Source of the DNA: Lolium rigidum
Lineage: Eukaryota; Streptophyta; Magnoliopsida; Poales; Poaceae
Assembly: GCF_022539505.1 (NCBI RefSeq)
Contig: NC_061514.1
Location: 35,307,769 to 35,371,768, forward strand
DNA length: 64,000 nt
Direction of reading: 5' to 3'
Under the pieces are notes generated by a model. It saw only the letters and a program-made list of their open reading frames with translations. It was not told the DNA's origin and did not search any database. Shown piece by piece: positions 14,706-47,420 of the stretch. The stretch's first letter is position 1, and every line of letters begins with the position of its first letter. The position numbers and the translations under genes were made by a program.

Positions 14706-14712
<7 letters not shown>

Positions 14713-17700
14713 CTCGAACCCTTTCTGAACTTCCGGGTGTTTTCCTAGTGAACTTCTCGACGGAATACCCGAATTGCATGTTCGTGCGGACAGTATTTTC
14801 ATGATGATTTTCAAACCGCTTATCGGATTGATGCGTATAATATACCGTTGGATTCGCACGGAAATTTCGCAACTTTTTCGTGTTCATTGTTTTCCCAAAT
14901 TCTATATTGATTAAAACTAATTTGAAATATACAAAACAACGTTTTCACGGATTTCTCTATTTTTGTACAGTTTTAGGGTTCCAGTTTTCAAACCGTTTAT
15001 CGGAATGATGCGTATGATATGCCGTTGGAAAGGTGCTGACTAGGCGCACCTTTTTCATGAAGAAAACTTTTCTAAATTCCTTATAGTTTAAGAGCAGATT
15101 TGAAAATACGTGATTACGTTTTTCAAACTTCTCGGTTTTTCAAACTGTTTTTGGGGCTTATTTCCGAACCACTTATCGGAATGTTCCAAATGATATTGCG
15201 TTGAAAATATATTGATTAGGCAAATCTTTTTCATGTTGAATGTTTTTCCAAATTCTAAATGGTTTTAGTTTAATTTCAGAAATACATAAAAGTGAAGATA
15301 ACGCCGACACAAGAACGTTTCGAAATTGGCTCATCTAGATTGATTAGGTGGGGTATTGCGATATGTTGGAGTATTAGTAGAGTTATATTAGTGCTAATTG
15401 TACGTTGAGTTGGTCGATTTGAGCAATCGGTGGTTGTACGGACGATTTCTATGCGTATGATTTCCGTCCAGAAAAACAGAGTGTATGAGGTGCTCGAATA
15501 TAGAAGTGAACTTCACATAGGATTTTCGCCTGGTAAAAACAGAGTGTATGAACTACGTCCTAACATGCAGGTGAACTTCGCGATAAGTGTTAGTGAACTC
15601 CTGGTCGCGAATTATGACATACAAAATTATGTTTTTTGAACTCAATCCTATGTGTTTTTGTAGTCTTTCGAAGTGTACATTTGATATTGTAAACATTGAA
15701 CCAACTTCTGAAATTTACGAGTGAAGATATAGCATCATGTGTGCTTTAGTGAATTTTTTCATATATACAAAAATAACTTCCTCACGAGAAAGAATAAACT
15801 TTTCAGATACTAAACAATCTCCCATGAAATATAAAGAAAATTCCCCGTGTTAATAATGTGAACTACTAGTTATTGTATGAATCAACTTTGGTGTTTACAG
15901 ACAAAACAAACTGCAATCTACTTGCAGTACCAAGTGTTTTTTTTCAAAGTTGTTCGCAGTTATGTGTGAACATTTTTCCCTGCTAATGAATTGGGGAAGT
16001 TTGTTATCAAACAAGTAAACTCGCACACCTAACTGAACTTATTTTACAAAATAATCTGTAGAAAAATCACTTACACAATCCATAAAAAAATAACTCCTAC
16101 ATAACCAACTTAGAACTATTTAAGGACCCGAACGTGAACTTGTCCTAACAGGAGGGTGTGCCATCGTGGTCCAGCTAGAAGGAGACACTTCACCCGCGAA
16201 GTCTTTTTAAGTAGCAAATTTTGTTTTCATAAGTTGGACTTTGATCTTCCCGTACTGACGAAATGAACTTCCTGTTAACAAGAAAATGGAACTTCGGTCA
16301 GACCATCCCTAAAATTATAAGAATGAACTTCCCTTCGAGTATTTTTTCCATTATGAACATATGCCAGAAAATATTATATAAATATGCAAACAAAACCTTG
16401 ATTGAATTATAAACAGAAATACTTGAGTCAAGCAGAACCATCAAGAGCAAATGAGCATTTAAATCAGAGTTAATACAAATACAAGTGGTCAATAAACCTT
16501 AAACTTATAGGCGGATAATGTGAAATTCATGACAATATACAGATGAACTTCAACAGAGAGAAAATGTGAACTTCACTAATAAAATGAACTCTGCGAGAAA
16601 GTGAACTCACATATAAGAGTAAATGAACATGATACGACAATGTTCGAAGGCTAACACGGAGCTATTATGTAAACCGTACAACTATTATGTGCAGAAGAAA
16701 CTCAAATCACCCCTAGAACTATATGCGCAAAAGATAATCAAAGTAGCAACCACATTTCATATTGATTAGCACCGGGAGTAGCATACTGACCTGGGCATGG
16801 GAGACTCTCAACTGCCTTAGTTGAAGCGGTGGACTCTCGGGATGGCGTTGGGTGGACTTCCTAGGTCAACTGCGTGAACTCCTAGGGAACAATCAAGTGC
16901 ACTGATATTAAATTTCTAATTATTCTTCATACTTGTACTATACTTCAGACTTCTACTATCATATACAACAAACTACCAGAACAGGAGAATGTACTGCCTG
17001 TTTTGTAAAATTGAGTAGTAATTAAAACTAAAAGTAGTTTGGTCTTGAAGTTTTTTTACAATGAATTTCTGATTTTAAGATTTTTATACAAAATAGAGTA
17101 AACTCCTCATGCCGGACAACTTCTCTGATGAATGAACGTGAACTTCGCAGCAATTAATTTGTTCGGGGTCACTTTTCAACTAAGGCATCAGTCACTTCTC
17201 CATGCATTAGGATAAACAAAACATCAATGAAGGTAAAACTGAACCGTGGGAAACAAATAAACTGAACTGTGTAACAAAGGCAGAACTAAACTGCAGAACC
17301 AGGTGCTTTATCCCTAGCAGCATCTCTACAAAATGAGGTCCCCATGCTGGTCGGGTTTAGAGGTGGCAGACAACGACGCTAAGATTAGAAATATAAGAAT
17401 AATCCACCTAGCGGGAATATCTAAATTTAAGTTGCAAGAGATGTGAGCTTCACCAATTAGGATGAATTAGGAGAAGTTAACTCCATAGGTCAGAAGAATG
17501 GAACTTCCAGTTAGCTGGCATCGGCGCAGGAACTTGGAGCATGTAGAGAACGAAAATGTACAAGGCTAACTCCCAGGAAAAAAGGAGGTGAACTTCAAGC
17601 ATGATTATAAAACAAACATCAACAGATTCCTATATTTTTTACCTCCAGAGATGAAAGTTCACAGCATACGTAACAAAAAAAAATTAAGACGGCAGCCGCA

Positions 17701-20640
17701 ATACACACATAGCAGTTCACTATTTCAATAAGCGAGTTCGAGAGCAACTTAGCCTGGGAGTGAACTAAACTGAGAGCGAACTTGATAGTTTATGTAAGGT
17801 GAACTTCCACTGTACAAACAGAGATATTTTTGTTTTTCTGTTTATATAAAATGTATACTTTTATAGTAAACAAAACACCAAACTTCGGCATGTTGATCAA
17901 CTGCATTTCACGATTAAAAACATATACTTTTTCGAAGAGCTGGTGTTTGCTTTTAAGGTTGAGGAAACAACACTACGTGTGCACTTCTCAAATGCAAATA
18001 ATGAACTTATACATATCAAAGAATGAACTTTTGAAATTGCTTTTAAAGCTAACGTCCAAAATTTTCCCAAACGAAACAAGCACACACAATCTATAAAATT
18101 ATCTCACACATGCACAACCAACAGAAATTGAAGAAATACTCTAAGTACGAAGTTAAAATATTCGGTAGTTTCTCGCGATTTAAGTGGTTGTGCCTGTACT
18201 GCGGTGCATCGGCAGCAGCAGGGGCTGCAACAATGAGGTTTAGAAATATAAACGAAGAAATTCAGAAGGGTGTGGCAATACGAACTTCAAAACAAAAATA
18301 AGTAAGCTTCATATGTGCATATGGTGAACTTATATTTTCAAAGCAATCGTAATGTTCTATAATCAGTACATGAAAATGGTAAGTTGTCCTCTAAACTGTT
18401 TGCATAAGCATACATGTGTAGAGTAATACAAGGAAATAAAAGTAAGCTTCCCCTCATAGAAGATCTGAACTTTTAGCAAACTATTGAATGGATAAGTATT
18501 GAGAGGAGGAGCAGCTGTGGTGTAGCAGCAGTACCTGTGCTTTAGATGATACGCTCGAATACAGAGCGTCGGCGCACCTTCCCGCACAACAACACCGGCG
18601 GCCCCTCTCCGACCTCCCATCCACCACCGCCTGATGCAACTCGAAATCTGCCTCGTGCAGCTCACCATGCAGCAGTTTCAGAGGCAACGCACGAAGCCAG
18701 AATATCTGCCCTGCAATGTTGACTTTTACATGAGCTTAATTTTTGTTTTACATATTTGAAAAGAACTGAAACCGAACTTCGTACATAAAAAATGTGAACT
18801 TCTGAATTCGTACATAAATTATAAATTGCAGGAGAGAACCAGGAACTACGAATATTTTATGAAATGATTCAGAAATGATTTACCTAGCAAGCATTTACAA
18901 TGTTTCTAAGGAATTTCAGCAGAAGATGACACTGGGACACCACAGGAATTTGTAGTGGCAACACACTTGAGTCCCCATGAAAAAAGAAACAAGGTGATAC
19001 ATCTCTGAGCTTGGATGCTTGCAATAACCTTTTAAAATTCAGAATAGGAGACAAAATAAAACGAACTGAATTTCCGAGATAAAATAAGTGAACTTCATGA
19101 CAAGGAAATGCAAACTTTGTGAGAGAGTACTTCACAACTGCAGTCTATGACTTTTAACTAGACCCGGCGCATATGATAAATTTCCAAATTTGCTATTGTG
19201 AACTTCTCTCAATTTGGAAGGTGGCATTTTTCTCTCACGTTTTTACAGGAACATGAACTCCTTCCCTCGAATAAAGACAAGAGCAAACTGAACTTCAGAA
19301 TAAGAAAAGTGTGAACTCCACCAAAAAAGAAAAGAGTGAACTCCAGATGAGAACAGAGCGAACACCCATACACAAAGCTAAACAGAGAACAGGTTTCGCT
19401 ACAGATGAAATGAACTCCAGATGAATTTATCACATGGACAAAGTGAACTTCATATAACATTATATACTTTTTCTGAGAAAAAATGTGAATTCTGCGTGTA
19501 GGACAAAGTGTACCTCTAATTTTATCTACCAAACTTCTGTGATTTTACATAGCAAACCGATGTAACCTGAATAGTGAACTCCTGTTTTCTTTTCCTCTAG
19601 GAGAACTGTTGAATTTTTATCACACTGGACTTCTCAAAACAATAATAGTAAACTTCATAGCTGCAGACACACTTTTGTATTTTTTGTTTGAATTTAATTT
19701 TTGTGGTGTGCTTTCAGACTGAAATAGTGGGAAAGATAAATAAACTCCCGGAAGATATAAAAGGAACTCCCAACTGTGAATATTCATGTTCATGAACTGT
19801 AACTGAATTTCACAATAAACACTAAACTAAACTCCCATCACTAACGAAGTGGTTGTACCAGGAAGTAGAAAGTCGACTCCCAACACTGACAAAGTGGATT
19901 CCCCAGTAAAAAATAAGTTAACTTCCAGCAAATAAAAATTCCATGTAGACGAATTGAACTTTATCAACATAATAACCTAAACATCTCACACAGTAGCAAA
20001 TGGATTTCTATATTTTATACAGTAGCAAAATTTTCAGCTTCTTTTATCAAACCAAAACGCCAATAATGAACTTCTCAAGGACACAAGAGTAAACCTCCAA
20101 ATACAGATTTTGGCATATCATTGAGAGTTTACGTTTACCGATCATATCACTGGAGTGCAACATCTACTCAAATTCACAAGCATAAGAGACAAACTGAACC
20201 TATCAGGAAAATAAAGTTTAACTTCCACGCCTTCTTCGTTTCTTTAAACCACAAAGCAGAGAAAAAGAACTCATTGAAAATAAAATACGAACTTGCCATT
20301 TGAACAATATGAACTTCTTTTTTCCTTCTATATCGCAATTATAGTACTTCTTCAAATATAAGCTATCGCACACAACAATCATCTTTTTGTTGTCCAAATT
20401 GTTTATCTATGCATTTTGGAAATAAATGCTACAGAAGTCCATGAAAAAATTATCTCTCACACACATAGCAGGGGCAGTTTCAGTACAAGAAAAATTGCCC
20501 AACAAGCAGATTCTCAGAAGCAGCAACACGTCAGTTCAGTTAGTGCAGCAGACCTATTTTCAGTACCAGCAGCTTAGAAGAGGGGAATCAGTGTTGGAAG
20601 AAACTACCTGAGCGGCCTGATGATCTGTGCTCTACGCCTG
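14706..20640. repeat. Left arm with about 22 GAACTTC motifs
   Basis: By hand count GAACTTC occurs about 22 times on the + strand, usually as GTGAACTTC or ATGAACTTC, and related GTGAACTCC adds about a dozen. The reverse complement is essentially absent. No long reading frame is present. The motif field ends near 20309. Confidence 0.8.
14805..15290. repeat. Three tandem copies of a 176-178 bp unit at the left end of the MULE
   Basis: TTTTCAAACCGCTTATCGG at 14808 recurs as TTTTCAAACCGTTTATCGG at 14984 and TTTCCGAACCACTTATCGG at about 15162. Each is followed by a TGATGCGTATRATAT-like block and CCAAATTCT about 80-90 bases later. Such units fit subterminal repeats of a large DNA transposon. Confidence 0.8.
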
Positions 20641-21000: not shown

Positions 21001-21291
21001 TGTCATGGGCCTACCAGCTCACGACGCGTCAAGTGGGCCGTCTCCACGGCCCAAGAGGGCCTGCAAGGACAACCCACGCTACAGCCCAGAAGAATGGACT
21101 ACTTGAGGACGAAGGAAAGAGCATTGGGGGCATCGAAGAACAGAACCAAGCCGAGACGGCTCTCCTGTATCTCAGTCTGTATCTCTCTCTATCCCATCCC
21201 AGGCTCCAATTCCCCTCCCCTTTCCTGCTGTATCTGAGGAATCCTGAACCCTAGACCTATATTGGGAGGAATCGAGAGTATAGCTGTAACA
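21001..21291 (+). repeat. 5' LTR of Reina-like copy 2
   Basis: It starts TGTCATGGGCC and ends GCTGTAACA. A pyrimidine-rich TATCTCTCTCTATCCC stretch lies in its second half. Confidence 0.95.
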
Positions 21292-21346
21292 ATCTGGTAT
21301 CAGAGCAACCGATCTGGCGCCGCGCACTCGATTGGTGACGGAAATC

Positions 21347-24300
21347 ATGGCGGAGTTGCAGACCAAGGAGCAGTTCGCGGAGATTATGACGGCGATTCGA
21401 GCGCAGACGGAGAAGTTGGACGGCTTCAACAACAAGCTCGAGACGCTAGAGGTCAAGGTGGCTTCACTGGAAGAGGTGAAGCCGGTGCTGGTGGATGCGG
21501 CGCTGTGGAAGCCCCGGGTCGATCTGATGCGTGGGTGCTCTCCCGGACGGATGCTGGGCGAGTTGCGGCGAGCATCGATCGCCTCGTCATCAACTCCGCA
21601 CCACCCGCACCAACGGCTCCCGCAGGGCGCTGGCGCCTCCTCCACCTCCCGGCCGGGGAGCGCCGCGCCGATCTGCGCACTGGTGACGACGAACGTCACG
21701 GGCCTGCTGGCCGCCGCGTCGACATCTTCACCCGGGGTTCGGTTATGGGGCCGCATCCCCAATCGACCCCGGCCAAGGGTACGCTCCCGTGCCATCCTCC
21801 TGAGTCTTCATCCAGTGTCGGGTTTAGAGATCGTGATAAGGAAAGGTTTGGAAAAACTCCGAGAGTGGATTGCCCTGGGTTCACTGGGGAAGGGCCACTG
21901 GAATGGAAAATCAAGTGCGAATCCTACTTCCGTGTGTGTCGGGTAGATCAGGATCTGTGGATCGACACCGCTGTGGTGTATTTCACTGGGGAGGCTGCTC
22001 TTTGGTTACAATGGACCAATGCGCACGGCGTCGCCCGAGATTGGGATGATTTCGTGTCCATGGTGTGTGCTAAGTTTGGTCGTCGTGAGTTTGAGCAGCT
22101 GTTGCGTCAGTTTTCGAGGTTGCGTCAAACGGGTACTGTAGCTGAGTATGCTGTTCAATTCAACACCGCTATGAACTGTCTCCTAGCACACCATCGCTCG
22201 TGGGACCCTCTTTATTTTGTCACTCAATTTGTTGATGGGTTGCGCGCTGACATTAGAGTGGTGGTTATGGTTCAACAACCCAAGGATTTGGACTCTGCGG
22301 TTTCTCTTGCTCTCTTACAGGAGGAAGCGATGGAGTTGACAAGGGAGGCCACGCGTGTGAGCAGTGGGCATGGTCCCTTTCCCAAGGCTCAAACGCGCAC
22401 GGCGCTGCCATTGCCGCCGCCGCCTGTTGGAAGGCCGCCGGGCCTGGCCACACCCTCGTCTCGCGTGGAGGACAAGCGCGGAGTGGCCAGCAATCAGATG
22501 CCATCCACGGACGACAAGGTGCGGGCACTGCGAGCATACCGTCGTGCTCGCGGGGAGTGCTTCGACTGCGGCGAGAAATGGGGGCGCAATCATGTGTGCG
22601 CTGCCACTGTTCCTCTCCATGTTGTTCAAGAGCTTCGTGTCTCTTGGAGGGTGAGATGGAACCGCATTCCTCACACTGTCGACTCGCGCGGTGAATTAGG
22701 CATGATATCCGCCGCAGCCTTACAAGGAATCGAGCCTCCACGGACGGTTCGAATCAAAGGAGTTGTACAAGGGCAAGAGGTGCTAATGTTAGTGGACTGC
22801 GGCAGCACTCACAGCTTTATCAGTGAGGCAATCGCTGCACGTTGGTCAGGTGTACGCCAGTGCAAGCCTATGCAAGTTAAGGTGGCCGATGGTGGGACGC
22901 TCAGGTGCGATTTGGAGATTCCAGAGTGCAAGTGGCAATCACAGGGCACTGAATTCCAGACTACTCTTCGGTTATTTCCTTTGGGGTGTTATGACATCAT
23001 CCTCGGCATGGACTGGCTGCGAGTCACGGGTGATATGAATGTGAATTGGCGCAAGAAACAGCTATTCTTCCATTATCAAGATCGTCCGAGTTTTTCTACA
23101 AGGCATGGTGACTGATACTACTACCTGTCAGAAGATCACTGCTGAGGAACTCCAAACCTTGAATGCAAGCAATGCTATATGCCATGTGGTCCAGTTGAGT
23201 GAGCTGAAGGAACCAGAGGAGCTGGTGCCATATTCACAAGATATTCAGAATCTCTTGTCTGAATTTGAAGGTTTGTTTGCTGAACCACACGGGCTGCCAC
23301 CAAGGAGGGAATTCGACCATGTCATTTCATTGTTACCGGGTGCAAGGCCAGTCAACATTCGTCCTTATCGATACAACCCAAGTCAGAAAGATGAAATCGA
23401 GAAGCAAATTGCAGATATGCTTAAGCAAGGGATTATTCGGTTCAGTACCAGCCCGTTCGCTTCGCCTATTCTCTTGGTGCAAAAGAAGGACGGCACATGG
23501 CGATTCTGTATTGATTACAGATACCTTAATGCTATGACACTAAAGAACAGATATCCTCTACCCATTATCGATGAGTTGCTCGACGAGTTATCGGGTGCGG
23601 CATGGTTCACAAGCCTGGATCTCCGAGCGGGCTATCACCAAATCAGGTTGGCTGAAGGGGAAGAGTTCAAGACGGCATTTCAGTCTCACCAAGGTCATTA
23701 TGAGTTCATGGTGATGCCTTATGGTCTGACAGGAGCTCCAGCCACCTTTCAGAATGCGATGAACAAGATATTCGCACCCCTCCTCAGACGATGTGTGTTA
23801 GTATTTATCGACGACATCTTGGTCTATAGTAAGACAATGGAAGAGCATAGGGAGCATTTGAGGGCAGTTTTCTCGTTATTGGAAGAGCACCAGCTGAAGG
23901 TCAAGAAGACCAAGTGCTCCTTTGCTCAACCCAAGCTCAAGTATACGGGGCATATTATCTCTCGCGACGGTGTGTCCAGCGATCCGAAGAATGCTGGAGG
24001 CGATACACAATTGGCCGGTACCTACCAATGCAAAAGATGTGAGGAAATTCACTGGGGCTCACTTGGATATTACCGCAAGTTTGTCCGCAACTATGGACTG
24101 ATCGAGCGGGGTGCTTACGGATACGTTGAAGAAGAACGAGCTGTTTGTGTGGACGGTCAACCATCGGGAAGCCTTTGACACCTTGAAACGAGGCCCTGCT
24201 GCGGGCTCCGGTGCTAGCCTTGCCCAATTTTGCAAAAACCTTCGTGGTGGAAACGGACGCCGGTGAAAAAGGATTGGGTGCCGTGCTGATGCGGGATCAA

Positions 24301-26085
24301 CATCCTTTGGCCTTCTTGAGCGAGCTCTCGGGCCGAGACTACGCGGCTTGTCGACATATGAGAAAGAAAGCCTCGCAATCCTTTTGGCCGTTGATCGGCG
24401 GCGACCCTACCGAGACAATCCCAGTTTGTTATCCGGACTGACCAACGTGCCCTCGCCCACCTAGACGAGCAGCGACTCACTACTCCATGGCAGCACAAGG
24501 CACTGACGAAACTGCTTGGCCTACAGTATACAATCGAGTATAAAAAAGGGTGTACCAATCAAGTTGCTGATGCTCTGTCACGTCACCCAGCTCTCTCAAT
24601 TGGGGAAGTGCTCTCCATCACGATGGGTACCCCGGCCTGGCTGGACGACATTGCTGCGGGATATGGTAAGGATGCAATCGCTCGGCGAGATTATCCGACG
24701 AGTTGGACAAACCGGACTCTACGGTGAAGCATATGTCTTGGGATGGACACATGTTGCGCTTCAAAGGGCGTGTATGGGTAGGCGGCAATCTTGCCATGCG
24801 GCGGCAAATCCTCCAAACACTTGCATGCAAGTGCCATTGGCGGTCACTCAGGGATTCAGGCTACTCTACAGCGGATAAGGCAGTTGTTTGCCTGGCCACA
24901 GATGAAGTCGACGGTGAAACGGTTCATTGATCAATGCAGTATCTGCAAGCAAGCTAAGACGGAGCGAGTGAAGTATCCTGGCCTCCTTCAGCCCTTAGCA
25001 GTGCCTGACTCTGCCTGGCAGGTGGTGTCGCTCGATTTCGTTGAAGGGCTACCCAAATCGTCGGGTTTTACAACCATTCTGGTCGTGGTGGACAAGCTCA
25101 CCAAATATGCACACTTCTTGCCTCTCTCTCACCCTTATACAGCAGCTCAAGTTGCCCGGCTCTACTTCGATCGGGTCTTTCGCTTGCACGGCATGCTGCG
25201 GCACTCATTTCGGACCGGGACAAGGTTTTTACCGGCAAATTTTGGCGGTCCTTGTTCGAGGCTGAGCAAGACGGAGATGCGAATGAGCACGGCTTATCAC
25301 CCGCAAACGGATGGGCGGACGGAGCGGGTCAATCAATGCCTCGAAACTTACTTACGTTGCTTTATCGGCACACGCCTGCACAGCGTGGAGTAAGTGGCTT
25401 CCGCTAACGAGAATGCTGGTATAATACGGCCTACCACCACTGCGATCAAGACCAACCCATTTCAAGCTGCAGCATGGCCATGCTCCGAGATATCCGGGGA
25501 TCACGGCTGAGTCGGTGCCGGTCACGGATCTGCGGCTATGGCTTCGGGAGCGCCAATTGGCAACGACGGTGCTCAAGCAACATCTACACCGAGCTAATAA
25601 CCGTATGAAACAATTCGGCGACAACAAACGTTCAGATCGTGTGTTTCGGGTGGGTGATTGGGTGTATCTACGTCTCCAGCCGTACATCCAGACGACCTTG
25701 GCCATGCGAGCCAACGCCAAGCTTGCCTTCCGCTACTTCGGGCCATTCCAGGTGGAGCAAAAGGTTGGGGATCGTTCCTACCGTCTCAAGTTGCCGGACA
25801 AGTCAAAGCTCCATCCGGTCTTTCATGTCTCGCTGTTGAGGAAAGGTATTCCACCAGAGGAAGTGCATGAGGAGTTGCCGGTGATCGACGATGAACACCC
25901 TCCCCGACACGTACCAGAGCAAGTTCTACAACACCGTCAAGTGCAGCGTCGTCACAAGACCAAGGACCAGGTCCTGATTCAATGGTCGGGACTGCCGGCG
26001 TCACTTGCTACTTGGGAGAATCTCGCCGAGCTGAAGACCGAGGTTTCCTCGAGCTCCGGCTTGGGGTCAAGCCGCTCTGAAGGAG
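21347..26085 (+). pseudogene. gag-pol polyprotein, frameshifted (Reina-like copy 2)
   Basis: The first ATG after the primer site is at 21347. A coiled-coil-like gag N-terminus (AELQTKEQFAEIMTAI) runs to about 21740. The frame then shifts and stays open to 23115, covering the rest of gag, a zinc knuckle (CFDCGEKWGRNHVC, about 22560) and a protease with DCGSTHSF. RT is intact at about 23300-23980, with FIDDILVYS near 23806. RNase H is scrambled at 24000-24560. Integrase has a Cys region (CSICKQ) near 24940, the first Asp in LDFVEG, a disrupted second Asp near 25210 and the Glu in TERVNQ near 25320. The integrase C-terminus and chromodomain (25515-26040) are open. Copies this young with broken frames point to trans-mobilisation or sequence indel errors. 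Confidence 0.88.
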
Positions 26086-26091
26086 GGGGAA

Positions 26092-26384
26092 TGTCATGGG
26101 CCTACCAGCTCACGACGCGTCAAGTGGGCCGTCTCCACGGCCCAAGAGGGCCTGCAAGGACAACCCACGCTACGGCCCGAGAAGAATGGACTACTTGAGG
26201 ACGAAGGAAAGAGCATTGGGGGCATCGAAGAACGAGAACCAAGCCGAGACGGCTCTCCTGTATCTCAGTCTGTATCTCTCTCTATCCCATCCCAGGCTCC
26301 AATTCCCCTCCCCTTTCCTGCTGTATCTGAGGAATCCTGAACCCTAGACCTATATTGGGAGGAATCGAGAGTATAGCTGTAACA
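26092..26384 (+). repeat. 3' LTR of Reina-like copy 2
   Basis: Near-identical to 21001-21291; flanked by the purine tract on the left and TATGT on the right. Confidence 0.95.
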
Positions 26385-26869
26385 TATGTATATCGCAATT
26401 CCAGAACTAGCAACTATGTTCTCCCATGAAGGTACTGTCGGCAGAGGAGATTGGAACCTTGCAGTGTGGTTACGTTCTTCTCTGAACCTACTGAAATTCC
26501 AAAGAACAAAAAAAACCGGCCATTTCAAGTCTACCGTGTATTTCAAGCACACCAATTTTGGTCGCGGCAATACGAATTTCTGCAAGTTGGGACAAGGAGG
26601 AAGACATGATGGATGTCATGTATCGAGTGCAACTTGAAATTTCCAATTAAAAAGCTACGGTACAAGAAATATATGACGAGGCGAGCGACTATATGAATTT
26701 TTTGTGGGAAGCTGCCAGCGGAGCGCTCGAAGTCAAGGCTGAAGGCCTAAATCACGGAGAAATCTTGCTCGCATAACAACGGGTAGACACTACTACAGCT
26801 GCCTGATCTAAGCAAACAAACGCCGAAACGCTTGCTTGTTTCCTATAATCCTAAAAGGGGTGCTTGTTT

Positions 26870-33945: not shown

Positions 33946-33947
33946 CT

Positions 33948-34630: not shown

Positions 34631-34639
34631 GCAAATCGG

Positions 34640-35765: not shown

Positions 35766-35771
35766 TGACAG

Positions 35772-36568
35772 GAATGGCTCGCTGGTCCATCGTACGTCAT
35801 CCTCGGCGACAGCGAAAGCGATGAAGAGACTCGTAAAAGAGGTAAAAAAAGATAGAAATGCTTTCAAAAATACTTTATGGAACTAAAAATGTGCTTATTT
35901 TTTATGCAGGTCCAACTATTCATGGATTTGAAATCTTTGACAAGCACTCGTCACTTCGGAAATGAAGTTGAAATGACCAAGGAAAATCTGGATCATCTCA
36001 AAAGGCAAGTACTTGACTACAAGCCAACAATCCCATATTATGTATGCAAGATGGGGAAGACAACGAACAACATCACGAGAGGCAGAATGGTAATACCAAA
36101 ACGCCAACTTACAAAACTTATTTTCGTACACTACCTGTATTACATATGATGTTTTGGCTGAACCAACATGTATTACTAAACTATATTACGGTCTTCCGAT
36201 ATTTAAATGTTTACTTGAAGTCCGGATAAAAGAAACTGTGAAGTTCACTTACGAATACACTTGAAACATGGCTATGATATTCACTTTCATGTGTTTTCAT
36301 GCGGACTTTCGATAAGGAATACACTCGAAGAACACCTAAAGAATTATCTAACGGAGCCAACAACAATTCCAATAACCTCCAACACAAATGCCCAGGTTGG
36401 TACACGGGTAAGGATAAACAAAGTTGCAAGCTCGGAAATGCGATGATGACAACAAATTGGCCGGATGTAGTCATGGGTGCAGAAATAAAAGATGGAGATA
36501 TCTGCATGTTCTGCTTCTACGACGGAACAAGAGAACTCGGCTGCTTCGTGACACGTCTTAGCAACTGA
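35772..36568 (+). pseudogene. B3-domain-like protein, multi-exon, damaged
   Basis: An acceptor-like TTGTGACAG precedes an exon reading EWLAGPSYVILGDSESDEE, which ends at a GTAAAA donor near 35841. The next exon begins after TTTTATGCAG near 35909 in matching phase (PTIHGFEIFDKHSS). It shifts frame once, reads LDYKPTIPYYVCKM and then RGRMVIPK. After an AT-rich interval another segment gives LQHKCPGWYTG, then NWPDVVMGAEIKDGDICMF and CFVTRLSN with a stop at 36566. The VIPK, GW and LKEGDICMF-like features in this order and spacing match plant B3 DNA-binding domains. B3 proteins bind DNA as transcription factors. The identification rests on short motifs. A DNA-binding accessory protein of the transposon is the obvious alternative role. 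Confidence 0.5.
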
Positions 36569-36569
36569 G

Positions 36570-37085
36570 TCTGAAAACCCTACTATGAAAATAAAATTAT
36601 GTACCAGTTTACTTTATTGAACCTTATGTTTTGTATCAGCACCCCGATAACAATTATGGTTGTGTTTCAGTATTGTTGATGTAATAAGAATGCTTATGAA
36701 GAAGTTCACATAGAGTGAGTACGAAGTTCGCTTATAAATGAAAAAAGATTAGCAAGTTTATATTCACGAAGTTCCCTACATGAAAAATCATTTCGAATAT
36801 AAAGGAATAAAAATAGTACGAGTTTGCATTGAGAAAAACGAATGGATATGGGAATACTTTTACACTCATAACTGGCAAAAAAAAGAAGTTCACACTTGTG
36901 ATGACGAGAGAAGTTCACTAATAACAAAAAAATACGGCACACAGATTTTGTACAGACTGTACACTTGTTTTGAAAAAAGAAAGAACATATCCTCACTAAT
37001 TACATCCGTATCCTGAATTCAATCACATAATGAGAAGTTCAGTTCAATAAAACAACAAAAATAAAAATGTTGAATATCCTATCAA
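36570..37085. other. Spacer, convergent 3' ends of B3-like and ULP1-like genes
   Basis: AT-rich, with GAAGTTC motifs near 36702, 36724, 36767, 36885, 36912 and 37033. No gene is seen. Confidence 0.6.
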
Positions 37086-37087
37086 CT

Positions 37088-40000
37088 ACTAATTGCGAAG
37101 ACAATTGAATCGGATCATCATCATGCGGATCCCAATGATTGTTTGGGTTGTCTGCGAACCTAGACCAATAAGCAGCATGAGATCTTTCAACATACTAGGC
37201 CACTGCTCCGCCAGAATTTCATTCTTGGGATGAAAAAGGAGCTGATACATGTACTCAGCTTTCCAATCCTCAACACGCCGCTGGTAGACAATCAGGAATG
37301 GAAAAAAAAACATAAGAAAAACAGTAAAAAAAAGACAAAAGAGCTATACAGCGAAAAAAACACAGCACTACACTTACATCCTGGTTTTTTATATTATCAG
37401 CAATCTTATCACCACCGTATGTAGCACAAATTCTTAGAGCATAGAAGCCACACTCATTAGCCCCTTGTGCCGGAGTCTTTGGATATGAACACCTGTCAGC
37501 AACAACATCCCACTGTATATTACCATTATATTTGTTAAATTCTGCAACACCATACACCTGTTTTAACAAGGCCACCATCCTATTAATCGCAAAAACAAAA
37601 AAAAGTGAATGGTTTCAGCGAGTTTAAAAACAAAAAAGGAAGAAAAAGGCTGGGAAGTTCACATAGTAATCGACATATCGGTTCACACACTACTACGGAT
37701 AGTTTCAGCAGTTTAAAAAACATATAAAAAGCTGGGAAGTTCACAGTGTACTAACATATCAAATTAACACACACAGTCAGATGGTTTCAGCAAGTTTAAA
37801 TAAAATATAAAAAAAGCTAGGAAGTTCATATTGTAAAAACATATCAGTACAGACAAAAAAGTTTGAATGGTTGCAGTAGTACACATAAAAAAGAAAAAAA
37901 GCTGGGAAGTTCACATTATATTAACAAATGAGTTCACATCAAAAAAGTAAAAAATGATAGCAGTGAAAAAGTAAAAAAAATAAATGATGAAAAGAAAATC
38001 ACGTACAATCTCAACACGATCCTCGTGGTGCCGACTCCTTGAAGTATGTGCCAGACCAGTATACCTCCTAGTGTCAAGGATGTCCAACGTACCAGTGTAC
38101 TTGTTCATAACATAAACAGAGTGATGATCATGCATGAAATGAGGGATGATGATCTGTTCAGAAACAACCGAAATTAACAAAAAGGAAGTACGCACGTGAA
38201 AACAAAAAAAAAACAAAGGAAGTTCACTACAGCAATATGAAGAGGTTCAGATTAAAAAAGCATACCAACTTTGCTTTCAGCAAATTTTCATTAGGCCGAA
38301 CATAACGCTTGAACATTTTAGCAAGCGAGACATCACATCAAAAGGTTGTCTCGGTAATGGATTACCATTGTCTGTCTCTTAGCTTGAATGGCGCAAAATC
38401 AAGCAAGTACTTGCACAAACACACAAAAGGAAAAACACAACCAAAAAAAGGAAAACTATACAAAGTAAGTATATGCATACAAAGGTATATCTGAAAAAAT
38501 TAATTTTCAATGTTTGAAAAAACCTACAGGGATAGTATGAGGTGACATCAAAACACGAGAGCCAGATTCAAAAATATATTTCATCCCTGGATCATCCTTC
38601 CAGTAATTGATGATACGATCCATCATGTCGGATTCCAACATTTCACAGCGGCCAAACAGTTTATACATGTACTTGGCATCAACTAAAACAGGATCATCAA
38701 AATCATTGCAGAACTTCACCAGGGGGACACTGCACACACATTAAAAAAGAGAAAAATATATATATAAGACTAGGGAAGTTCACTTAGCATATAAAAAAAT
38801 GAAACTCTCCTAAAACACACAAAAAAATAAAAGACCTAGGGAAGTTCACTTAGCACAGTATATGAAGTTCATATGCCACAAAAAAACTAACTAAGTAGTA
38901 AACGAAAAACATACCTTCCATGAGCTTTGATGTACTCCTTGCTTAGAATTAACTCCATCATCTCGCTTGGCCTTGGATAAATGAGGAAACACATATGGTA
39001 CAAAGTTTGGGACTTCTTCCCCGAACTTATTGGACAATTTAGTAGGCCTTTTATTCGAAAGAACCAGATTTTTAGCACTAGACTGCCTGGGCTTCTGAGT
39101 TTCAAAATCATCACTGCTAGTCGGAGAACAGCGCCGAACATCCTTTGTAATGGGCTTCGCAGTAAGCGTCTTACCAAGCTGAGTGACAAAGTCATCAGAA
39201 TCATCATCGTCGTCGAGCAAAACTACATCAGCCTTCCCCTTCTCTGCAGTGTCGGGAACCTTATTCCTAGAAGATTTTCTGGTATTGGAATGCAGCCTCT
39301 GGATAATCTTCTTTGACTTGCTTACAAGACTATCAAAATTCTCTTCAGGGATAATCTGAACTTCTGGTGTGAATGACTGAGTCTCGAAAAGTGAGAAATT
39401 ATCTTCCTCGATACCAAGAGATGGACCTGCATGAAAAGTATACAAAAACCAGGAAGTTCACTTCTGAATCAAAACACAAAAACAAACAGAAAACAGTGCA
39501 GTCCAAAAAACATATGTTATAGAGCATAGCCAGCGATATATTTTGCAAAAAAAGTAAAAATCATACCAGGATCAACACCTAAAACATCTTTCAGGTCGAT
39601 ATTGAAATCTCCACCTGTCAACCAGCTATATAACATGGTCATCCTGATGTTTAGAATATCTTTTTGACTGAACAAGCACATGCTTTCCCCATCATAAGAC
39701 TGGAGGATCTGTAGCATGAAGAACCCGCAATCATGGCTGCAAAAAAAACACAAACAAAAGAATAAGAATAAAAGAAAACAATTGTATTAGTTAAAAAAAA
39801 ACCTGTAGTCAATGTATACATAATAAAGAGCAAAACAAGAGAAGAGGGAAAAAAACGCTTACGCAGTTGCCTGTCTTGGAGAATTAACATAGTGAAGCTT
39901 GAAGTGGTCGATGGATTTTGGATGAAAATGATCACCCTTTGAATTCCCTGCTAACGACCATAACTTCTTGATACCAGATGCCATTGTATGTAACAGACTT

Positions 40001-43000
40001 CTTACCATCCGGATCATTTATATCGCGTAACGAATCAAGCAATTCAAAACGCTCTTTCTCAAGGTTCAAAGCAACAACACGAAGTGACCGAGGAACGTGT
40101 GGTGCACATGGATCAGGAGGATCAAAGGTACCAAAAAGAATCTGCCATTAAAATGATAAAAATAAAAAAGGACAGGTTAGAAGTATGAAAGGTAGACTAT
40201 TTCCTCAAAATAAGAAATCACATTTAACTTTACTACTGAGTTATTTTAGTAACATGTACAACAGGGGAGGGAAGAAAAGGTAGGAAGTCCACATGCCATA
40301 ATTAGTGAAGTTCAGATGTATAGAGAAGAAGAAAAAAGACAACAGTCAGTACCACTTTCTTGTGGTCCAAACGTTCGGAGCATCGACGCTCGAAAATATT
40401 ACGAACAAGCCGAGAACTCAGATTTCTTTCAAATATCCGCCTCTGCAAACATGACAATGAAACACAAAGAAGGTTAAAACATAAAGGAGGAAAAAATAAG
40501 CACCAACATTAACAAAAAAAACTAAAAAATGATAAAAAGAACGGAGAAATAACTTACGGAACAAATGTATGGTACCACCATTTTATCGAATTCTTGTACT
40601 TCGACCAAGCAAGTATGTTCCAACGAAACAGGTTAGAGAACAAAGAAAACCGTTGGGTTTAAAAGCTTCAAGCAATTTGTCCGATCGTGCAATCACATTG
40701 ATCATTCCCGAAAAGGGTCTTCTTCACTGCAGAAAAAAACACAAAAATTAGAGGACAAAACAAAAAATTTAATAAAAAAAAAACAAAAAAAAGCCTAAAA
40801 AACGGATAGAACCTTCTTATGGGATCTTTCCTCAACTTGCAAACACTTTCATATACTTCTTTGATTTTAATCATCATAGGTTGAAGAGACAGTGAAGGCG
40901 TCGAACATAAACTCGAGTCTGCAAAAAATAAGGAAATACAGACAAAATGTAAGAACAAAAAAGAAGTTCAGATGATGATATTCCAGAAGTTCACATATTC
41001 AAATAACGTGGTGCAGAAACTGGAATATCCAGAAGACCCACAGTTCATCAATGAAGGCTACCATCAAAAAAATACACACACACGATATCGCTCCCCCCCC
41101 GGTCAGTCATATACAAGCAGAAAAATGAAAACTACGACATGAACTCATGCCGCATTACATAGCATTAGAAAGTGTCTTACATGGAACATGATGCCAAACA
41201 GCGAAAAACAAAAATACATATACAAAAGCACCCCACCACACCCCTCCCCCTCATAAAAAACCAAAAAAAAGGAAAAAGGTTTTAGATAGAGATATATGAG
41301 GAGTAAACATAAAGAATAAAAAGGCGGGCTAGCATTAGGGGAGGGTGTGTGGGGTAGGAGAACTGTATGTTCCCCATTCAGATATCCTTGCCTAAGTCTT
41401 GCGGGGATTCTTCAATAGAAGCGCTCAAGTCATCCGTTGATTCTTCAAAGAATGAGCTCGACTGCTCAATCAAATCAGAGGCATCGCGTCCATGGTTATC
41501 TCCAGCCTGAAACTCATTATTGTCATCATCATCAGCACCAGTGCTGCGCTCTATATTGGCTTCAGTAACCGGCAGTTCTTCCCGTGCAGCAGCAACACCT
41601 ACTTCCTCACGACCATGCGCAACAACAGACTTACAATCCATAGCAGCTGGTAATACACCAACATCATCAGCAGCCTCAGCACATGTTTCGGAAACAACTG
41701 CACCAATACCAGGTAGTTGGGCAGCATCCTTAGCATCATTTCCATCCTGACATGTTACAAGATCTTCAGGAATTGAGAAACCTTTTCCAATGAATCGCAC
41801 AATCTTCGTCATGGTGTTCGACATCTTTGTCTCCATCGAGAATGTGCAACTATCTCGGAAATAAATTCCCCTTTCCAACAGAGTCTAACTCGGAATAATG
41901 ATCAGCAACTTTGTCACATGCACCACAGAATTACCATCACTGTCATCTAAAGGAGGAGTTACAGGGGTTGCCGGATGAACAAAATTATGCTTGACATAAT
42001 AACGATCAACAGATGAATTGTCATCACTGTCATCTGGAAGACCATCCTTCTCAACACACTTTTCATTTACCTACCAAACAAAAAACAAAAAAAAAACAGA
42101 AGTTCAGATGTAGAAGATGGAGTAGTTCATATACACAAACAAAAAACAAAACAAAAGCCCAACTATAAAAAAAATAAAAAAATAAATTGCAAAACACAAA
42201 AAAAAATACCTCAGCTAAAGGAGGTGATTTATCAAAAACTGCATCTTCAACATGATCACCAGCAAAAGCTGGAGGACATTGAGGGGTTGGCGGACGAACA
42301 AACCCATCATTCACAGGTGCATGATCACCATCTCCTGAATTCTGAGGTGCATTTTCCTCAGCAATCCTAGCATCTTCCTGCAAAAAAATAAGAGGATAAC
42401 AAAAAAGAAAAGGTAAGGAAGTTCACATGAAACAACACAGAAGTTCACATATGTGTAATAACACAAAACAAGAGATAAAAAAAGGAAGTTCACATAAAAA
42501 GGGATGGACATAAGTTCAAGAATGACTAATTATACCTCAGCTTCAGCAGTCGATCGACCAAGTCCTGCATCAACATCTTCAACGAGAAGAAGAAAAATTC
42601 TTCCGAACATTACTTTCAACACTATTATTGCCCGATACATTTGCACGGCTCTCAAACTCGCTTGCACAAAGAGTCCCGATTCATACCAAAATCAAGAAAA
42701 CCTGTGCGCATTAGAGACAAAGCCCCCTCAAGCTATCAAGGAGCGATGTTTCACGCTTTGATCTGCTCATCCGAGTGCTTCAACACTCAGGGAAATTACC
42801 ATCGGCAAGCCGACCTTGAAATTGTTTCAGACGATCAGCTGTAGTCGGAATCGTACGAGAGAGATACTCAACTTTATGCAACAGTGATCCAATCTGATCA
42901 ATAACACCAGCAGAAGGCATCCCAGCACTAGTTGAAGCAGACTGGTGCTTGTCTTTCGTGTTGACATTAGCAATTTGCGAAATTGGAATCTCGCAATGAC

Positions 43001-46000
43001 CTCCAGCAGGATGTTCATTGGCATTACCGAGCATCAGGCTCACTACAATGGGTGCCCTCATTAAGATGAACAATTAAATCTTCAACACGATACCGATATG
43101 AATAAGCAATTTGGTTGCGGCCTTTCCACTGCATTGTAATACGGGAGTTCACTTAGCAGATAATATGAAGTTCAGATGATACATAAAAAGTAAAAAATAT
43201 ATAAAAAACTATGTAAGTTCACTTGGATATAAAAAGTAAACCTCATATGCCACATAAAACATTAAAAAAAAGACATAAAGGAAGTTCACTTGCGACGTAG
43301 TATGAAGATCGGATGCCACATAAAAAAAGGGTTACGAGTTTGAAAAAACTAACCACAATTCCGCCAAACTTGTACTTCATCAACTCGGTCCACCATTCTT
43401 TTGAATGTCCATTTTGTAAATAGCCTTCGGAGGTTTCTCATGCGTAAAGTTTGCGCGAGGAGTTCGAGTATGCATGACGGAATGTGGTGGTAGAAAGATG
43501 CTTGTCAAGATACATAACGGTGGGGATAACAAGCACACCCTTCTAACCCGACTCGAGGGATATCGGGGTCTTGATATTTAGTAGCAGCTCGTTTCAACTC
43601 ATCAACAACAAGCTGGCAATAATCCATCTTTGCCATCTTATCATAATCCATGTTCACAAGCATTGCAGCTTCCCTACCGACACGGGTAGCTGAACCAGGA
43701 CATATGAGCTTACTAAAAAGAATGGCAAAGAAGACCTTAACAGCCAAATCTTCCTTCTCGGGGTCTTCAACAAGATCATATAACAATTGACGCAGATCTT
43801 TAGGCTCAATACTAGCATTGCTTTCGAACCCAAACTCTTGTTTCAAAAGAGCCAATGACTCGTCATGTCCAGATTCTCGCGAGCGGTATAGGAGTATCGC
43901 CTCCTATAGGAAAACCAAACACCCGATGAACAAGTGTCTCTATTAACCTCTAGAACTCGCCGGATCCACAAGCCAACTTCATGGTAGAAGTGTCAATAGT
44001 CTTCATCAAATAACACATGAGAACACGTGATATGTTACCCTCCAGGACCCACCGAAAAACACAGCCAAAACCAGACTTGCTCAACCTTCAATCTGTGTTG
44101 CGGTTTTAACATTGTCTGCAGCCGAACGAACTTCACCGAGAGAACAGCGAATAGTTTGCCGAAAACGTGTCTTCTCACCATCAAGATCTTCAACTCGCCT
44201 TCCTCTTCCTAGCCATGGTTTTCTTTGTCGGCCTTTTCGTAACTTTCTTCGAATCACCTTCCAAAACAACAGGTTTAGAAGGACCTGGCTTCCTACCAAC
44301 TTTCTTCCCCTGGTATAGAAAAAAGCATAAAAAAACAAACATTTAAAAACCACAAAAAAATTAATGAGAAGAGGAAGTTCACACCAACATGAACACAGAA
44401 GTTCACACTACACTAACCTTGGCAGGAGCTTCAAAGTCTGATTCATCGCTAACCAATTCTGTACGACTCTTCTTAGCATTGCACTACATAAAATGAGATG
44501 CATAAAAAGGGAAGAGTTCAGATTCAATAAACAAAGAAGTTCACAGTGGAAGAATTATGTAAAAATGAACAAAACAAAAATAACCTTGCCAGCAGCAACA
44601 CCATCTTCAGTGGAATCTGGGACATATGTCTCATCGACATCAATCTTACGTTTACGGTGACCCAGACGTGATTTCCCAGGAGATGAAACTCGTTTCGAAG
44701 CAACGGTGGACTGGACAGTAGCAGCAACACGAGGGCTGCGCCGCACAGGATTTGTAGCCTGGACAGAAGCAGCAGATTTTTTTTAAAAAAATAGAGAAGT
44801 TCACAATGGCACACATATGTAAAAGTGAACAAAAAAGGAATTTAACAGAATAAACAAAAATAAGAACATAAAAGAAATAACCTTGTCAGCAGCAACATCT
44901 TCTTGAGTGGCACCTGGGGCGTATGTCTGCCGCAAAGGATCTCTCGGCTCGGGCAGCTGACGCAGCAGCAGCTCTTTCCCCGGAGGTGAATTCTCTTTTA
45001 TCTTCCCGCAAACAACCCTTTCTTTCCTCACTTTAGGAGGAATAATTTCAGCAAAGACATTCATCACGTGTGCTTTCAGCAGCCTCGCCGTCACGTGGAA
45101 CATCATTGACAACGGCATTACCCTTAGCAGACTTTGCTTTCGCAGGGTATTTCCGGTAATATGTAGTCAATTTCTCCTGGTGCTGAGCTAATTTAGCAGC
45201 TTGTCTCTCCTTTTCCTTCGCAAGCTGTTCTTCAACCATATAATCCTGAGTAACTATTTGAGTACCAGCCACAGACTGAGATTGGGTTTCTTCCATCACA
45301 GGTGTAGCTTCAACTGTTTCAGATTCAAGAACTTGCCGCAGAGGAGTATAATCAAAAACAGGGCTGCCCATGTTACCCTTCTCAACATCATGAGTCCTGT
45401 CAAATACAGGGGGATCTAAGAAACGCGGTAAACTGTCAGTAGAATATGCAGCAAAATCCTGGTTCAGCAAATCCAGAGATTCTCTTATAGTCTTGTCAGC
45501 TGCATAACACAAACAAAAAACACAAAAAAGAGTAAAAATGTAATCAAGAAAGCTTGTATGGATTGCAGGAAAAGGAAGTTCACTAGAAAATGTTAGTGAG
45601 GTTCACATATGTATGTTCCTAACCTGACTCATCGACATCATCCGTCATATTAGAAGATAAATTCCCCAAACCAGAAAACACAAGATCACCGTAATCATCA
45701 ACATGATCAAATACCTTCCCTAAAAAATACAGAAAACAAAAAAATTCAATCTCAGAAACATAGGAAAAAAATTCATGTTCAGACTTATACTTCCTATGTG
45801 CAGCAAAAATGTTAATTTCATGATTCACTTTAAAAAAAAACAGCCTGTACATGAAAATAAACATTATACATAGGAAGAATGAACATAATTAATACAGTGA
45901 GTTCAATTAAATGACAAGTAGTTCATAACATGTGCTATACAGAAACACAGATAAACAGATAGAACCCTAAATGGTGACCACAGGGAATTATAACACACAA

Positions 46001-46178
46001 AAAAAGCCTACAGAAAAGCAAACCCTAGAACAAAAATAAATGGGCCAATCATAGGACAGAACAAAAACATGGATATTTCATTTTTGACAACGCAAGAATA
46101 AAGCATGAATTTATGGGTAGTAAAAAATACAAATCCGAAAAACAAACCTCCACCACCAGTCGAAGCATCCTTATCCAT
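37088..46178 (-). pseudogene. MULE-borne protein with two ULP1-like cysteine protease cores, multi-exon
   Basis: The start is ATG 46178, chosen because three first exons splice in one phase: 46178-46148 (MDKDASTGGG), about 45720-45624 (KVFDHVDDYGDL) and from about 45499 (DKTIRESLDLL). Exons near 44.9, 44.7, 44.45 and 44.3 kb are basic (SPGKSRLGHRKRKIDVDE). About 44.05-43.5 kb carries the conserved N-terminal module of MULE ULP1 proteins (LVHRVFGFPIGGDTP). Acidic linker exons lie at 43.1-41.4 kb. Core 1 (40.1-39.5 kb) has RFELLDSLRD and HDCGFFMLQ, with Cys near 39729; the usual His-Trp is not seen. Core 2 (38.2-37.1 kb) has HHSVYVMN (His near 38123), LDILDTRRY (Asp near 38075), Gln near 37467 and ANECGFYALR (Cys near 37452). 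Several frameshifts are present. ULP1 enzymes remove SUMO-like modifiers. Confidence 0.8.
41378..41878 (-). CDS. Longest acidic linker exon of the double-ULP1 gene
   Basis: This 166-codon open frame includes SNTMTKIVRFIGKGFSIP and then an Ala/Glu/Asp-rich segment ending EESPQDLGKDI. It has no recognisable domain and is low-complexity and acidic, like linkers elsewhere in this gene. The stop at 41378 is unexpected if the exons downstream belong to the same reading frame. Either it marks the end of a first gene, or splicing skips it, or it is damage. This leaves open that the 46.2-41.4 kb and 40.9-37.1 kb parts are two adjacent genes. Confidence 0.45.
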   Translation of the reverse strand: MERGIYFRDSCTFSMETKMSNTMTKIVRFIGKGFSIPEDLVTCQDGNDAKDAAQLPGIGAVVSETCAEAADDVGVLPAAMDCKSVVAHGREEVGVAAAREELPVTEANIERSTGADDDDNNEFQAGDNHGRDASDLIEQSSSFFEESTDDLSASIEESPQDLGKDI

Positions 46179-46179
46179 C

Positions 46180-46570
46180 ACTCACAGAGAAATAAAAAGA
46201 GGAACGGACTCCCAAACCAAAAATTGAAGCCGACCAGCCCGTATGGGACGAACTAGAACCACCGCGAAGAAGAATCAGAGTAGCGCCGGAGTTCCAACCG
46301 CCGGCCGAACGGGGAAATATCGCCGGCAAACACCGAAGACGGCGAGGACGAGCAAACTGCAGCGAACCTAGGGTTTAGACCAAAGGGGAAATGGTGGATT
46401 TCGAGTAGAACGAAGGAATAACAACAGGGACGGGGGATAGCAAACGATGCGGGGGCAGCAGTTACCTAGAGCGCCGCCGCCATTGCAGAGAGGATGTAGC
46501 AGTTTCGGGATGTCCGCCTGCGAGTGGGGGAAGTGGGGAGTGCGAAGGAGAAGGCGCAGACAAGAGGAGT
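46180..46570 (-). promoter_or_regulatory. GC-rich 5' region of the double-ULP1 gene
   Basis: A GC-rich island lies directly upstream of the ATG at 46178, in an AT-rich surround. It mirrors the GC-rich block in front of the transposase. I see no clear TATA box in it. Confidence 0.45.
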
Positions 46571-46599
46571 AAAAAGAGGAGTTGGAAATAACTGCACCA

Positions 46600-47420
46600 A
46601 ATTTATATTAAAAAAAAGGAGGCAACAATAAAAAAACACCGAAACGTTACCTTTGTCAGTCAGATAGAAACAAACAGGAAGTTCACATTTAACTCGCGAT
46701 CGCGATTCACTTTGTCTAAAAAAAAAGAAAAATATAGGATGGGAGGGTCACACCCGCACTGTCCCCACAACCATTACGAAGTTCACTTGCAAAACACGTC
46801 AGGGGTTCACTCATCTTGAAAAAAGGTATTTGGGTATGTTTTAAAAACATTAATTGATTTCCTAATATAGCGGGTAGGAGTTTCCCACCACAATTACGAA
46901 GTGCACTTCCGTAAACGCAAGGAGTTCACTAATCTTAAAAAAGGTATTACACTCTATTTTAAACATTTATTAAAAAACCTTTTATTCATTTCCTAGTATA
47001 GTAGGGGGTCCCCCCCAACCCCCTCCCCCCTTTAATGGTACAAGAATAAAAAAATTAACACTGGTTAATTTATACATGGAGTTAAAGAAAAAGAATACCA
47101 GAAGTAAACTGACAGCAGTTCACGTAATAAAGTAACAGCAATTCATTTTCAGATAAAAAAAGATAAAAACATGCGTATGAATGGAAAAACAATAATACAA
47201 CAAAATTGGATAGTACATTAAAGGGAAGTTCACAACTTACAAACAGAGAGATACATACATGCTCGATGTGGATTTACATGTGAAATAGAGGCCACAACTT
47301 ATCTGAAAAGATGTAAATCAAACATGCAATTGACAAAGTTCATGCATTCCGGTAGTTCACATCATAAAATTAAAGAAGTTCATTTGTTATAACACCAACA
47401 AACATGCACTGCTGGTAATG
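46600..47420. repeat. Right arm of the MULE with GAAGTTC motifs
   Basis: Non-coding, with GAAGTTC near 46679, 46778, 47225 and 47374, and GGGGTTCACT or GGAGTTCACT variants. An internal near-repeat, TTCACTCATCTTGAAAAAAGG and TTCACTAATCTTAAAAAAGG, lies about 120 bases apart (46806 and 46925). The motif stops before 47.5 kb. Confidence 0.7.

What the first reader, a model, noticed from the sequence alone, without database searches (positions are those of the whole stretch)
14706..47420. Giant MULE combining transposase, DEDDy exonuclease, B3-like and double-ULP1 genes
Seen: motifs of four unrelated protein families lie within one 19-kb stretch (28.0-46.2 kb) unified by the same short repeated motif in introns and spacers. 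Known: ULP1-like genes occur in plant MULEs (Kaonashi type), and FAR1-like transposases define many MULEs. Inference: the exonuclease and B3-like genes are also element cargo, making a transposon with its own DNA-end processing and regulatory proteins. I know of no description of this exact gene set, but I could not search.
Basis: partly seen in the sequence, partly recalled or inferred. Interest (0 to 1): 0.9.

Follow-up and report, generated by a model that had tools for sequence, protein, structure and literature searches.

The report
Giant transposon with one-way address words
A stretch of probably ryegrass DNA carries a transposase gene beside SUMO-protease-like, exonuclease and weakly B3-like genes, plus 49 copies of one nine-letter word that all point away from the middle; together they likely form one giant mobile element whose word would be the docking address for an element protein predicted to keep the element from being silenced.

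Summary
Pfam confirms FAR1 and MULE transposase domains, a 3'-5' exonuclease and a Ulp1 (C48) protease; the second Ulp1 domain is confirmed only through homologs, and the B3 match is below Pfam's cut-off. The word GAAGTTCAC occurs 49 times between 14.7 and 47.4 kb: 38 on the + strand (right arm), 11 on the - strand (left arm), 0 in the opposite orientation, 0 in the 31 kb outside. None of the 38 right-arm copies lies in exon. Orientation follows the arm, not gene direction. A Ty3 retrotransposon is nested at 21.0-26.4 kb.

Closest known system: Ulp1-carrying VANC (KIU) genes of Arabidopsis non-TIR MULEs, where short noncoding motifs are targets of an anti-silencing protein. I infer a grass system of similar working, plus an exonuclease and a B3-like gene. 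A Festuca predicted protein joins the transposase tail to the same B3-like domain. Co-location of the exonuclease elsewhere was not shown; no TIR, no significant TSD and no DUF1985 were found. Many frameshifts look like assembly errors at CAG/CTG sites. Closest relatives are Lolium and Festuca, not Triticeae.

The parts
14706..47420 (.). Inferred extent of the element (32.7 kb; about 27.3 kb without the nested retrotransposon)
   Evidence: Limits of the motif: outermost AAGTTCA-type cores at 14726 and 47376; true borders not established
14748..19451 (-). Left-arm array: 11 exact GAAGTTCAC, all on the - strand
21001..26384 (+). Nested Ty3-type LTR retrotransposon (a later insertion, not part of the system)
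   Evidence: LTRs 21001-21291 and 26092-26384; TATGT at 20996-21000 and 26385-26389
26385..28100 (.). GC-rich centre without the motif (0 exact copies, 0 with one mismatch)
   Evidence: possible divergent promoter (inference)
28137..47233 (+). Right-arm array: 38 exact GAAGTTCAC, all on the + strand, in introns and spacers
28816..33180 (+). Transposase gene: FAR1 domain, MULE domain, C-terminal zinc knuckles (long exon 32255-33160)
   Evidence: 77% identity over 97% of the query to Lolium P0067
33948..34630 (-). Intronless WRN-like DEDDy 3'-5' exonuclease gene (frame shifted in this assembly)
   Evidence: Pfam DNA_pol_A_exo1 1.8e-5; 81% identity to Lolium perenne P0009; catalytic residues
35774..36568 (+). 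B3-like gene
   Evidence: Pfam B3 1.1e-4, below cut-off; 59% identity to the end of Festuca P0076
37100..46178 (-). ULP gene region: N-terminal domain (44.1-43.3 kb), acidic middle, two Ulp1-like domains (40.6-39.5 and 38.7-37.1 kb); one protein in wheat, perhaps two genes here (a stop after ELGKDI at about 41.38 kb is shared with Lolium P0002)
37643..37993 (+). Small tandem array (unit about 82 bp) that carries the motif
   Evidence: motif copies at 37654, 37736, 37906
48001..48100 (.). Gap of 100 N just beyond the right limit

Best explanation
This is likely one giant Mutator-like transposon that carries its own sequence-specific anti-silencing system: a double-Ulp1 protein that it encodes is predicted to recognise the GAAGTTCAC words spread through its introns and spacers and so to keep its chromatin open. 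Shown: the genes, and the number, one-way orientation and absence from exons of the word. Inferred: that all parts are one element, that an element protein reads the word, and that the effect is loss of silencing marks, perhaps through SUMO removal. The transposase would do the cutting, the exonuclease would trim or repair DNA ends, and the B3-like protein would be a second DNA-binding factor. The shared orientation within each arm suggests a reader that binds or spreads with a direction.
For: MULE/FAR1 transposase, exonuclease, C48 and weak B3 matches. 49 outward against 0 inward exact words, 0 in 31,285 flanking bases; 38 right-arm copies all in 9,225 noncoding bases, 0 in 10,095 exon bases; conserved core of about 11 bp. 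Known precedent: VANC21 binds a nine-base motif in noncoding parts of its own MULE family and removes methylation (PMC5735166 and PMC10398659, passages); a review says that Ulp1-carrying VANC (KIU) genes do likewise (PMC13317346, passages). Two catalytic sets H-D-Q-C in one wheat protein (P0004) and in Lolium P0001. Transposase tail and B3-like domain joined in Festuca P0076. Lolium P0001 reads EVNFL where the window has GAAGTGAACTTCCTG, compatible with the same word in another copy.
Against: No TIR; the best direct repeat at the limits (10 bp) is matched or exceeded in length by 20% of control pairs. DUF1985, a domain of VANC, was not found in the ULP proteins. The word is mostly not in tandem repeats, unlike VANDAL21. 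No recognisable gene in the left arm. The four more distant Festuca ULP hits do not show the double catalytic set. No listed row shows exonuclease and transposase on one contig. No binding or methylation data. In this copy the reading frames are broken (57 shifts in 2790 aligned codons), including the catalytic H of the first Ulp1 domain.
Confidence: 0.45

Rival explanations
1. The words are a transposase-binding array (spread-out subterminal repeats): the FAR1-type transposase binds them, their orientation marks the end to which each half belongs, and anti-silencing plays no part.
For: Opposite orientation in the two arms is what end-related repeats would show; FAR1 is a DNA-binding domain.
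Against: Words run through the whole right arm, up to about 19 kb from its end, and are not denser near the limits in the position list; subterminal repeats of DNA transposons usually lie near the ends (established knowledge, recalled).
Confidence: 0.2
2. The B3-like protein, not the ULP protein, is the reader of the word, as a transcription factor that drives the element's own genes.
For: B3 domains are sequence-specific DNA binders (established knowledge); the gene sits next to the transposase gene here and in Festuca P0076.
Against: B3 match below cut-off in window and Festuca; words are spread through introns and spacers and are not confined to promoters.
Confidence: 0.15
3. The words have no function: they spread by duplication of intron pieces, which also keeps their direction.
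For: A motif-bearing tandem array at 37.6-38.0 kb and duplicated pieces 38746-38886 and 43185-43326; 13 of 75 sites have a flank at 0.65 identity or more against 0-4 in five control sets.
Against: 62 of 75 sites have no flank match at 0.65, and none reaches 0.70 (two of the control sets do, with 4 and 2). Conservation ends at about 11 bp.
Confidence: 0.1
4. The interval is a patchwork of two or more unrelated repeats, and exonuclease and B3-like genes belong to others.
For: No border found; left arm without recognisable gene; no listed contig shared between exonuclease and transposase rows.
Against: One rare word covers the whole interval and nothing else in the window; transposase-B3 adjacency recurs.
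Confidence: 0.1

Closest known systems
Kaonashi (KIU) non-TIR MULEs: Ulp1-carrying VANC genes
   Same: MULE with transposase and a Ulp1-bearing gene; short motif in noncoding DNA (review PMC13317346, passages)
   Different: Two Ulp1 domains in one protein of wheat and Lolium; DUF1985 not detected; extra exonuclease and B3-like genes; motif with fixed direction; grass and not eudicot
VANDAL21 / VANC21 of Arabidopsis
   Same: Nine-base word repeated in introns and upstream regions of the element, not in coding parts (PMC5735166, passages)
   Different: Other word (YAGTATTAY there); there in tandem repeats, here mostly dispersed; no Ulp1, exonuclease or B3 mentioned in the passages seen; protein binding shown there, not here
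WRN-type DEDDy exonuclease
   Same: Catalytic D-E-D-Y-D pattern; homolog P0009 weakly matches human WRN exonuclease in the PDB (2fbt, E 0.017)
   Different: Stand-alone protein of about 205 aa in a family of many copies, beside a transposase

Membership tests
MULE (Mutator-like) superfamily | MULE-type transposase domain | tested here: met
   PF10551 E 7e-28, PF03101 2.2e-12
MULE (Mutator-like) superfamily | Target site duplication of about 9-10 bp | tested here: inconclusive
   Exact 10-bp repeat TCAAAACAAA at 14637-14646 and 47643-47652, but 20% of 2000 control pairs share a word as long; gap at 48001-48100
MULE (Mutator-like) superfamily | Terminal inverted repeats (absent in non-TIR MULEs) | tested here: inconclusive
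   At most 10 of 20 terminal bases match in any pair printed (best 5-6 pairs for each setting); borders unknown
VANDAL/KIU anti-silencing MULEs | Gene with Ulp1 (C48) domain (KIU) | tested here: met
   PF02902 5.7e-7; two stretches in homologs
VANDAL/KIU anti-silencing MULEs | DUF1985 domain of VANC | tested here: not met
   No hit at E up to 10 in the window's N-terminal domain or P0001-P0008; hmmscan filters may miss remote kin
VANDAL/KIU anti-silencing MULEs | Short motif enriched in noncoding parts of the element | tested here: met
   38 of 38 right-arm copies noncoding
VANDAL/KIU anti-silencing MULEs | Motif carried in tandem repeats | tested here: not met
   Mostly dispersed; one small array
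VANDAL/KIU anti-silencing MULEs | Encoded protein binds the motif and removes methylation | not testable with these tools
   Needs binding assay and methylome
DEDDy 3'-5' exonucleases | Catalytic D-E, D, Y-D residues | tested here: met
   All in the window; among 58 homologs, of those with a letter: D 53/54, E 50/54, D 55/55, Y 50/50, D 47/50
B3 DNA-binding proteins | Match to the B3 profile above the curated score | tested here: inconclusive
   22.5 bits against 30.1 in the window; 18.3 in Festuca; structure model too poor
Ulp1/C48 proteases (second domain) | H-D-Q-C catalytic set | tested here: met
   H...D in the pattern search and Q...ECG in P0001 and wheat P0004; in the window by my reading

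The most novel reading that the evidence does not exclude
A grass transposon of about 27 kb has written a direction-coded address into its noncoding DNA: one word, read outward from the centre whatever the direction of the genes, is recognised by its own double-headed SUMO protease, which travels along each arm and clears silencing, while its own exonuclease and B3-like factor free it from host repair and regulation.
Probability: 0.22. Interest if true: 0.85.

Novelty: new variant of a known kind. Interest (0 to 1): 0.6.

Why it matters
Sequence-specific anti-silencing by a transposon is described in the sources I saw for Arabidopsis MULEs; the cited study of its coevolution names eudicots in its title (Sasaki 2022, seen only as a reference). 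A grass example with a sharply defined word of fixed direction could be tested at once (does the double-Ulp1 protein bind GAAGTTCAC and strip methylation?) and might give a tool to open chromatin at chosen sites in grasses and cereals. A transposon-borne DEDDy exonuclease would also bear on how MULE ends are processed.

Tried and rejected
TIR/TSD search: no TIR; an exact 10-bp direct repeat TCAAAACAAA at 14637-14646 and 47643-47652 is a candidate TSD, but 20% of 2000 control pairs share a word at least as long. Left arm against right arm: apart from the nested retrotransposon's own LTRs, only short matches, at best 34 bp at E 0.047, many of them the word. Pfam on the left arm, both strands: nothing below E 0.3. 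Exonuclease tails against the ULP and transposase proteins: no match. Viral contigs: no relative of the exonuclease. Structure models of P0003 and P0076: mean pLDDT about 40, so no fold search was run. The motif's letters in papers: 0. The idea that the frameshifts mean a long-dead element was weakened by the CAG/CTG pattern, with reservations told in the report.

Full report
What is there. The window is plant nuclear DNA. The best hits are Lolium multiflorum for the ULP protein (84% identity in the aligned part), Lolium perenne for the exonuclease (81%) and Lolium multiflorum for the transposase (77% over 97% of the query), so a Lolium-like grass is likelier than a wheat relative (inference). 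Unjoined six-frame reading of the same stretches found only FAR1 and MULE among these families. The second Ulp1-like domain gives no Pfam hit in the window, but Lolium P0001 and wheat P0004 each show two C48 stretches. In wheat both domains, each with H, D, Q and C, lie in one 1598-aa protein with the N-terminal domain. The four more distant Festuca hits (P0005-P0008) do not show this double set. In the window and in Lolium P0002 the N-terminal half ends at the same place (ELGKDI), so here the two halves may be two genes.

The motif. GAAGTTCAC occurs 38 times on the + strand between 28137 and 47233 and 11 times on the - strand between 14748 and 19451. It occurs 0 times in the opposite orientation in either arm, 0 times in the nested retrotransposon and the GC-rich centre, and 0 times in the 31,285 flanking bases. 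With one mismatch allowed the counts are 65 against 4 (right) and 32 against 6 (left); with two, 108 against 43 and 64 against 37. The core AGTTCA is found 109 times outward and 8 times inward. In 200 order-1 Markov resamplings the mean number of exact copies was 0.185 (right, at most 2) and 0.03 (left, at most 1). None of the 38 right-arm copies lies in 10,095 bases of exon; all lie in 9,225 noncoding bases. With one mismatch, 2 of 65 are in exon. The exon limits are the 22 stretches plus 5 that I read myself. Information is confined to positions -2 to +8 of the core, giving GAAGTTCACWT. Flanks are slightly more alike than in controls (13 of 75 AAGTTCA sites at 0.65 identity or more against 0-4 in five control sets; none at 0.70, where two control sets have 4 and 2), so the word is mostly dispersed and not copied with its surroundings. 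Exceptions are a small tandem array at 37.6-38.0 kb and a duplicated piece (38746-38886 and 43185-43326).

Orientation. In the right arm the word is sense in the transposase and B3-like genes and antisense in the exonuclease and ULP genes, so orientation follows the arm and not transcription. It flips across a centre that holds the nested Ty3 retrotransposon (21001-26384, TSD TATGT) and a GC-rich, motif-free stretch. A site read without regard to direction would be expected in both orientations; 49 to 0 calls for a directional reader, an end-related role, or a copying mechanism that keeps direction. Which of these holds is not decided.

One element or several? For one: the common extent of the motif; motif copies on both sides of each gene of the right arm; a Festuca glaucescens predicted protein (P0076, cluster of 15 members) in which residues 234-422 match the transposase's zinc-knuckle exon (83%) and 426-578 the B3-like gene (59%), so that this adjacency recurs; and the exonuclease gene between these two. 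The exonuclease family has many copies (58 hits, top cluster of 77 members), as expected of transposon cargo, and keeps its catalytic residues. Against, or open: no TIR; a candidate 10-bp duplication TCAAAACAAA just outside the motif limits that 20% of control pairs match in length; a 100-N gap at 48001-48100; no recognisable gene in the left arm; no other copy with exonuclease and transposase seen together, the listed rows lying on contigs of different length (cluster representatives, listing 120 of 327). The own-genome search did not complete.

How it likely works. VANC proteins of Arabidopsis VANDAL MULEs act on noncoding parts of their own family and remove methylation, and VANC21 binds a nine-base motif there (PMC5735166 and PMC10398659, passages). 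A 2026 review states that some VANC genes carry a Ulp1 domain (KIU) and act likewise on KIU-carrying elements (PMC13317346, passages); the primary paper is not held. The locus has the same combination of MULE transposase, Ulp1-bearing gene and short noncoding word, so I propose the same working. Membership is not claimed: DUF1985 was not detected, and the word is mostly not in tandem repeats. The parts played by the exonuclease and the B3-like protein are inference.

State of this copy. Against Lolium proteins the coding parts show 44 +1 and 13 -1 shifts and 195 mismatches in 2790 aligned codons. Of the 44 +1 shifts, 23 lie in 16-base stretches holding CGAG or CTCG, against 10.7% of control stretches; of the 13 -1 shifts, 6, against 9.2%. 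The commonest change that would explain a mismatch is CGG for CAG (18 of 193 testable, next best 6); the mirror change CCG for CTG adds only one. The LTRs of the nested element differ at 3 places, all CAG against CGG or CGAG; a second LTR pair (2442-2793 and 7563-7912) at 7, 4 of this kind; two older repeat pairs show mixed differences. The simplest reading is assembly error at CAG/CTG sites, as could arise if CHG-methylated cytosines were misread in nanopore data. It does not account for all shifts, and the cause is my inference: the two Kyuss ryegrass assembly papers use nanopore reads (PMC8358221, PMC10940895, passages), the word methylation does not occur in them, and I do not know that the window comes from them. 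If right, the genes are less broken than they look and the copy is methylated.

What is in print. Listings of searches for Mutator-like with ULP1, exonuclease, wheat and B3, Kaonashi/ULP1, Lolium with Mutator, FAR1 and ULP, VANC with monocots, non-TIR MULEs with exonuclease or cargo genes, and the motif letters (0 papers) named no such gene set or word. I read listings and passages only, and the library lacks most subscription papers.

Noticed in passing
21001-21291 vs 26092-26384; 2442-2793 vs 7563-7912; coding exons 29.5-45.5 kb: Differences between near-identical repeats and many frameshifts sit at CAG/CTG read as CGG, CGAG or CTCG, which looks like a systematic assembly error at CHG sites.
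   Followed up: partly
14780-15270: Diverged tandem repeats of about 177 bp at the left limit (14808-15092 resembles 14985-15268 at 70%).
   Followed up: no
18484-20954, - strand: Open stretches that might be exons of a left-arm gene (for example 20954-20655 and 18735-18484), with no Pfam match.
   Followed up: partly
48971-50108 and 58066-59202: Inverted repeat pair of 1.1 kb at 92% identity.
   Followed up: no
56498-57076: Two adjoining minisatellites (28-bp unit x13, 29-bp unit x7).
   Followed up: no
43.3-44.1 kb, - strand; P0003: N-terminal domain of the ULP protein (FGFPxGG motif) without Pfam match and present twice in Puccinellia P0003; its likeness to plant mobile domain/DUF1985 is recalled, not tested.
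   Followed up: partly
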